In this document: in pieces, positions 53,037-53,325 of the stretch
Layout: every line of letters starts with the position of its first letter
How positions within the stretch are numbered: the stretch's first letter is position 1
Assembly: GCF_947241125.1 (NCBI RefSeq)
Contig: NZ_OX365700.1
Span: forward strand, 4,002,461 to 4,066,460
From: Nitrospira tepida
GTDB lineage: Bacteria; Nitrospirota; Nitrospiria; Nitrospirales; Nitrospiraceae
Direction of reading: 5' to 3'
Length of the DNA: 64,000 nucleotides
The notes under the pieces: model-generated
Told to the model about the DNA's origin: nothing
The model's database searches: none
The model's input: only the letters and a program-made list of their open reading frames with translations
Made by a program: the position numbers and the translations under genes

Positions 53037-53115
53037 CGCCTCCTCCTTGGTGAAGCCCGTCCTTGTCTTGATGCGGGCTCGGTGGCCCAGGCAACTGTGC
53101 GGGCTTATGGAATAG

Positions 53116-53181
53116 GGAATGTGACGACCCGGCTCGGCCGCGGTCTCTTCGGACCGGAGGCGTATCGATCTGTCACATTCC
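53116..53181 (-). ncRNA. Candidate bridge RNA structure in the IS110 leader
   Basis: On the transposase strand GGAATGTGAC and GTCACATTCC form a perfect 10-bp closing stem, and CGGTC-CGAAGA-GACCG forms an inner hairpin (53141-53156). It lies between the IS end and the transposase start, where IS110 bridge RNAs are encoded. The full RNA probably extends from about 53215 to 53040. Confidence 0.6.
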
Positions 53182-53325
53182 GTATGTCTCATGTACCACA
53201 ATTCCAAGATACAAGGCGTACTTGAAACAGTACGTTGAAGGACTGAGCGGCGAGCACGCCCGCCGACAGGCGTGTCGCAGCAGCGAATCCGCGATTGCAG
53301 CAGAAGCGTTCATGAATAATGCGGG

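What the first reader, a model, noticed from the sequence alone, without database searches (positions are those of the whole stretch)
53037..53215. Structured leader of the IS110 element fits a bridge RNA
The 179 nt between the IS110 end and its transposase contain a perfect 10-bp closing stem (GGAATGTGAC/GTCACATTCC) with an inner 5-bp hairpin and unpaired loops. IS110 transposases use a bridge RNA from this position whose loops pair with donor and target. The insertion junctions are known here because the host MITE has an intact copy, and a CT dinucleotide flanks both ends on the transposase strand.
Basis: partly seen in the sequence, partly recalled or inferred. Interest (0 to 1): 0.8.

Follow-up and report, generated by a model that had tools for sequence, protein, structure and literature searches.

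The report
Bridge RNA of a Nitrospira IS110
The 179-nucleotide leader of a jumping gene in this Nitrospira-family genome carries every main sequence feature of a bridge RNA, a small RNA that pairs with both the jumping gene's own ends and its landing site, and ten identical copies sit at sites that match its guide; it is a clear new member of a system discovered in 2024.

Summary
The leader (53037-53215, minus strand) holds the 10-bp stem and the inner 5-bp hairpin, but that stem closes only the target-binding loop; a second, donor-binding loop follows at 53054-53105. The element (52069-53215) has ten identical copies in the genome, so its ends, its CT core and ten targets are known. The recombinase matches the IS621 transposase (8wt6, E 2.9e-43). 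Across 52 related leaders the stems covary (19 of 29 pairs change on both sides; 92% of cells paired). An unguided scan of RNA columns against target positions ranked the right target guide, the left target guide and the donor-loop handshake base as its top 11 of 5,569 cells. Donor variants are mirrored by the donor guide in 9 of 11 cases. RE and LE joined in a circle form TTGACA-17 bp-TATCTT. A covariance model built without this lineage finds the leader at E 1e-21. All seven insertions into the host MITE lie in copies that match the guide. One relative carries a changed guide and sits in the matching MITE subtype. This is a new member of the IS110-group bridge RNA systems. Expression and activity are not shown.

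The parts
52069..53215 (-). IS110-group element, 1147 bp counting both CT cores; ten identical copies in the genome
53214..53215 (-). left core dinucleotide CT (start of LE)
   Evidence: intact MITE copies have one CT
52069..52070 (-). right core dinucleotide CT (end of RE)
52086..53036 (-). IS110 recombinase, 316 aa; residues D11, E55, D97, D100 and S235 align with IS621 D11, E60, D102, D105 and S241
   Evidence: IS621 active-site residues from PMC11208158
53037..53215 (-). LE (179 nt) holding the bridge RNA
53116..53181 (-). target-binding loop hairpin: outer stem 53172-53181 with 53116-53125; after a bulged A, GATC/GGTC 53167-53170 with 53126-53129; inner stem 53152-53156 with 53141-53145
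   Evidence: covariation; fold
53158..53164 (-). left target guide TACGC plus core CT (leader nt 52-58)
53133..53139 (-). right target guide GGCCG plus core AG (nt 77-83), pairs with CT|CGGCC; nt 84 (53132, C) fits the handshake position facing LD -1 G
   Evidence: handshake positions from PMC11208158
53054..53105 (-). donor-binding loop hairpin: stem AGCCCG/CGGGCT 53100-53105 with 53054-53059; inner stem GGGC/GCCC 53085-53088 with 53075-53078
53091..53098 (-). left donor guide ACAGTTGC (nt 118-125), identical to RE ACAGTTG|C
53062..53072 (-). right donor guide, discontiguous: AT (nt 144-145) and ACAAG (nt 150-154), pairs with LE CT|TGTAT
   Evidence: sequence; same split pattern as IS621 (PMC11208158)
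53061..53061 (-). handshake base G (nt 155), can pair with LT -1 (C) after strand exchange
   Evidence: z 6.3
52071..52077 (-). left donor (LD) ACAGTTG
52084..52089 (-). -35 TTGACA of the promoter formed when RE joins LE; the stop codon TGA lies inside it
53206..53211 (-). -10 TATCTT of the junction promoter (17-bp spacer in the circle)
51990..52068 (-). right-target half of the host MITE; CT|CAGTCC
53216..53326 (-). left-target half of the host MITE; ...AAGTACGC|CT

Best explanation
The leader encodes an IS621-type bridge RNA. Inferred cycle: the element excises as a circle, and RE-LE joining builds a sigma-70-like promoter that transcribes the leader. The RNA binds the DEDD/serine recombinase. 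Its first loop pairs with the target TACGC|CT|CGGCC: the left guide with the bottom strand, the right guide with the top strand. Its second loop pairs with the element's own joined ends ACAGTTG|CT|TGTAT. Top strands are cut at CT and exchanged, helped by handshake pairing, which inserts the element. In this genome the guide sends the element mostly into one MITE family and related REP-like repeats. Shown by sequence: anatomy, stem covariation, guide-target and guide-donor covariation, ten natural targets, the promoter match. Inferred: transcription, RNP formation and strand exchange.
For: Recombinase: Pfam DEDD_Tnp_IS110 and Transposase_20; closest solved structures IS621 and ISCro4 transposases, E about 3e-43. 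Stems: 29 pairs on 52 sequences, 92.0% of cells paired, 19 pairs and 142 cells changed on both sides, covariation 0.347 against 0.175 shuffled and at most 0.090 when slid. Guides: of 5,569 RNA-column by target-position cells, the top 11 are nt 77-81 with RT +5 to +1, the LTG columns nt 53-57 with LT -5 to -1, and nt 155 with LT -1. Cross-pair test: LTG 4.0/6 against 2.40 sd 0.12; RTG 4.14/6 against 1.76 sd 0.14. Ten own targets score 7-10 of 10; only 0.93% of CT sites in the window reach 7. Donor: LD variants mirrored in LDG in 9 of 11. Junction promoter TTGACA-17-TATCTT here, -35 at least 5/6 in 35 of 50 relatives. Leave-out model finds the leader at 99.2 bits, E 1e-21, and only the ten copies in the genome. 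MITE natural experiment: 7 of 7 insertions in TACGC copies, empty copies 19 TACGC and 19 other, Fisher p 0.0145. Relative L071: guide ATATGCC, inserted in GTATGC|CT of a MITE copy.
Against: No RNA or recombination data. No Rfam family covers it even at E up to 1. The 5' stem-loop described for IS621 is not stable in this lineage (-0.7 kcal/mol, worse than most shuffles), although some relatives have one. The LTG matches only 5 nt plus core. RT pairing is imperfect in most own targets unless rG:dT pairs are counted. Eight of ten insertions are in repeats, so they are not independent samples.
Confidence: 0.97

Rival explanations
1. The leader is an ordinary structured 5' UTR or attenuator of the transposase gene and does not guide insertion. 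Target choice comes from protein recognition of the MITE.
For: It lies directly upstream of the gene, and the whole leader folds only weakly better than shuffles.
Against: A plain 5' UTR would not covary, position by position and on the predicted strands, with the flanking target DNA of 45 elements, nor mirror donor variants.
Confidence: 0.02
2. The match between leader and target is a side effect: the element captured a piece of MITE or flanking DNA, which later looks complementary.
For: The LTG TACGCCTC resembles the MITE segment, and closely related elements share it.
Against: Two own insertions lie outside these repeats (L007 TAAGC|CT|CGGCC, L008 TACGC|CT|CGCTC) and still match. Relatives from other phyla with unrelated guides match their own unrelated targets. 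The right guide is the reverse complement of RT, not a copy of it.
Confidence: 0.005
3. It is an IS1111-group element whose RNA lies in the right end, the leader stem being incidental.
For: Same recombinase superfamily.
Against: RE is only 15 nt between the stop codon and the core, LE is 179 nt, and the model hits LE only.
Confidence: 0.005

Closest known systems
IS621 bridge RNA-recombinase system of Escherichia coli (Durrant et al. 2024 PMC11208160; Hiraizumi et al. 2024 PMC11208158)
   Same: DEDD/serine recombinase, RNA in LE about 177-179 nt, two hairpins with internal guide loops, CT core, bulged A in the stem, split right donor guide, handshake base, junction promoter, repeats (REP there, MITE here) as targets.
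   Different: Right target guide pairs 5 nt beyond the core (IS621: 2; longer ones are reported in orthologues). Left guide is in a register one nt shorter than in most of its own relatives. No stable 5' stem-loop. Different target program.
ISCro4 transposase (PDB 9t56)
   Same: Homologous recombinase over 304 residues, E 3.5e-43.
   Different: Its RNA was not compared here.
IS1111 group
   Same: Related recombinase family with bridge RNAs.
   Different: RNA in RE and 7-17 bp subterminal inverted repeats, according to PMC11208160; here the RNA is in LE and RE is 15 nt.

Membership tests
IS110 group (bridge RNA elements) | Recombinase with DEDD RuvC-like domain (PF01548) and C-terminal PF02371 with conserved serine | tested here: met
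   Pfam 9.4e-23 and 4.2e-21; alignment to 8wt6 keeps D, E, D, D and S
IS110 group (bridge RNA elements) | Long LE with structured RNA, short RE | tested here: met
   LE 179 nt, RE 15 nt plus core; model hit in LE only
IS110 group (bridge RNA elements) | Two hairpins with internal loops, supported by covariation | tested here: met
   19 of 29 pairs with double changes, 0 of 500 shuffles as high
IS110 group (bridge RNA elements) | Target loop pairs with both strands of the target around the core | tested here: met
IS110 group (bridge RNA elements) | Donor loop pairs with the joined element ends | tested here: met
   LDG identical to LD over ACAGTTGC; variants mirrored 9 of 11; RDG covariation not testable because RD hardly varies
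IS110 group (bridge RNA elements) | Same core dinucleotide in target and donor, scarless insertion | tested here: met
   CT at both ends in ten copies; intact MITE copies have one CT
IS110 group (bridge RNA elements) | Sigma-70-like promoter formed at the RE-LE junction | tested here: met
   TTGACA-17-TATCTT, sequence match only
IS110 group (bridge RNA elements) | 5' stem-loop before the target loop (a feature of the IS621 RNA; it varies within this clade, so it is not treated as defining the group) | tested here: not met
   -0.7 kcal/mol, 159 of 200 shuffles fold as well; present in some relatives
IS110 group (bridge RNA elements) | RNA transcribed, bound by the recombinase, guides recombination | not testable with these tools
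   needs RNA sequencing, binding and recombination assays
IS1111 group | Bridge RNA in a long RE | tested here: not met
   RE 15 nt; no model hit there

The most novel reading that the evidence does not exclude
In the Nitrospira lineage, IS110 bridge RNAs and one MITE/REP family are in a running relationship. The MITE supplies many harmless landing pads, and element lineages retarget by single guide substitutions (ATACGCC to ATATGCC) that follow MITE subtypes (TACGC to TATGC). This would be natural reprogramming of an RNA-guided recombinase caught in the act.
Probability: 0.35. Interest if true: 0.55.

Novelty: new member of a known kind. Interest (0 to 1): 0.4.

Why it matters
It extends the bridge RNA mechanism to elements of a nitrifier family with a natural experiment: ten identical copies, a defined MITE target set with matching and non-matching subtypes, and a relative whose guide and target changed together. 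The clade re-derives the published guide and handshake rules from independently gathered sequences. It shows a consistent 5-nt right target guide beyond the core, and extending that guide raised recombination efficiency in the published IS621 work.

Tried and rejected
Rfam gave no match, neither at gathering score nor at E up to 1. Fold energy of the full leader is only weakly significant, so covariation was used instead. An exact pattern search TACGCCTCNGNCC found no site, because the common MITE version has T at RT +1. My first guide parser misassigned some loci by taking the donor loop as the target loop; those were left in, which lowers the reported signal. IS1111 membership and the plain-UTR reading were considered and rejected. 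The donor scan also lists cells at near-invariant positions with z of 5-8; these are small-number effects and are not used.

Full report
Observation. The leader between the left end and the start codon of the IS110 transposase (window 53037-53215, minus strand, 179 nt) contains exactly the 10-bp stem and 5-bp inner hairpin described. The hairpin folds better than 198 of 200 dinucleotide shuffles. The full leader alone is a weak case (7 of 200 shuffles as good).

Element and targets. A search of the genome in which the window lies found ten copies identical over the query. Comparing flanks gave an identical 1149-bp block that includes two conserved target bases, GC, next to the left core. Read on the transposase strand, each copy is LT-CT-[TGTATCTT...GACAGTTG]-CT-RT. 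By inspection of the flanks, seven copies lie in one MITE family, one in a REP-like repeat and two elsewhere. Intact MITE copies have a single CT at that point. In the window the cores are at 53215-53214 and 52070-52069.

Recombinase. The 316-aa protein has PF01548 and PF02371. Its closest solved relatives are the IS621 and ISCro4 transposases (E about 3e-43). The catalytic residues of IS621 align with D11, E55, D97, D100 and S235 here (residues named in PMC11208158).

RNA structure. 80 loci from one genome per species and further ones from the phylum gave leaders of the same layout. On 52 aligned leaders I counted a named structure of two hairpins. 92.0% of cells pair, 19 of 29 pairs have changes on both sides (142 cells), and the covariation score is 0.347 against 0.175 for shuffles and at most 0.090 for slid partners. 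RNAalifold finds essentially the same structure. A covariance model built from 29 leaders outside this lineage finds the focal leader at 99.2 bits, E 1e-21, the next hit being E 2.5. In the whole genome it finds exactly the ten copies.

Guides. For 45 non-redundant elements with both flanks, every RNA column was compared with every target position, as identity (bottom-strand pairing) and as complement (top-strand pairing), against permuted pairing of elements. Of 5,569 cells the top 11 form two diagonals and one extra point. Leader nt 77-81 are complementary to RT +5 to +1 (right target guide). The columns of nt 53-57 are identical to LT -5 to -1 (left target guide; in the focal element itself the guide sits one nt earlier, see Register). 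Nt 155 is complementary to LT -1, which is the handshake guide position of PMC11208158. A separate cross-pairing test gave LTG 4.0 of 6 against 2.40 (sd 0.12) and RTG 4.14 of 6 against 1.76 (sd 0.14). The sequences are related, so these are not exact probabilities, but guides and targets differ widely between elements.

Own targets. The guide pair of the focal element predicts TACGC|CT|CGGCC. The ten sites score 7-10 of 10, where 0.93% of CT sites in the window score 7 or more. The two sites outside repeats score 9 and 8. Three MITE sites read CT|TGGTCC and pair fully if rG:dT is allowed. Among MITE copies the seven insertions are all in TACGC copies, while empty copies are 19 TACGC and 19 other (Fisher p 0.0145). 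An 83%-identical relative (L071) has the guide ATATGCC and is inserted at GTATGC|CT in a MITE copy.

Donor and promoter. The left donor guide ACAGTTGC equals the RE end. In 11 relatives with a variant LD, the guide carries the same variant in 9. The right donor guide shows the split AT...ACAAG pattern seen in IS621. Joining RE to LE yields TTGACA-17 bp-TATCTT, with the stop codon inside the -35 box. 35 of 50 relatives have at least 5 of 6 -35 bases at 15-19 bp spacing.

Register. In 12 of 51 leaders, including the focal one, the left guide fits best with 6 nt between the conserved CG and the core; in 37 it fits best with 7. This agrees with the 8 or 9 nt reported for the left guide in PMC11208160. 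The focal leader lacks a stable 5' stem-loop.

Verdict. This is an IS110-group bridge RNA element. The mechanism is well supported by sequence. Transcription, RNP assembly and recombination are inferred from IS621. It is a new member of a known kind with an unusually clean natural target set.

Noticed in passing
50800-51608 (+): IS4/5-type transposase in two overlapping frames (DUF4096 at 50800-51282, DDE_Tnp_1 at 51093-51608), as in IS5-family elements with a programmed frameshift.
   Followed up: partly
53757-54935 (-): Fic/DOC family protein with Fic_N, Fic and a C-terminal HTH domain.
   Followed up: no
57935-58146 (+): A second, diverged (72%) intact copy of the MITE in the window; the genome gives 54 MITE matches, with TACGC, TATGC and TCTGC subtypes at the insertion point.
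   Followed up: partly
53158-53164: Left target guide is in a register one nt shorter than in most relatives (12 against 37 of 51).
   Followed up: partly
G000:C1:4408092-4408349 and 519188-519445: Two further Transposase_20 matches in the genome that carry no match to this bridge RNA model; probably another IS110/IS1111 branch.
   Followed up: no
52086-53207 (-): The transposase frame stays open back through the leader to a TTG at 53207 (373 aa); the leader part overlaps the RNA and is probably not translated.
   Followed up: no
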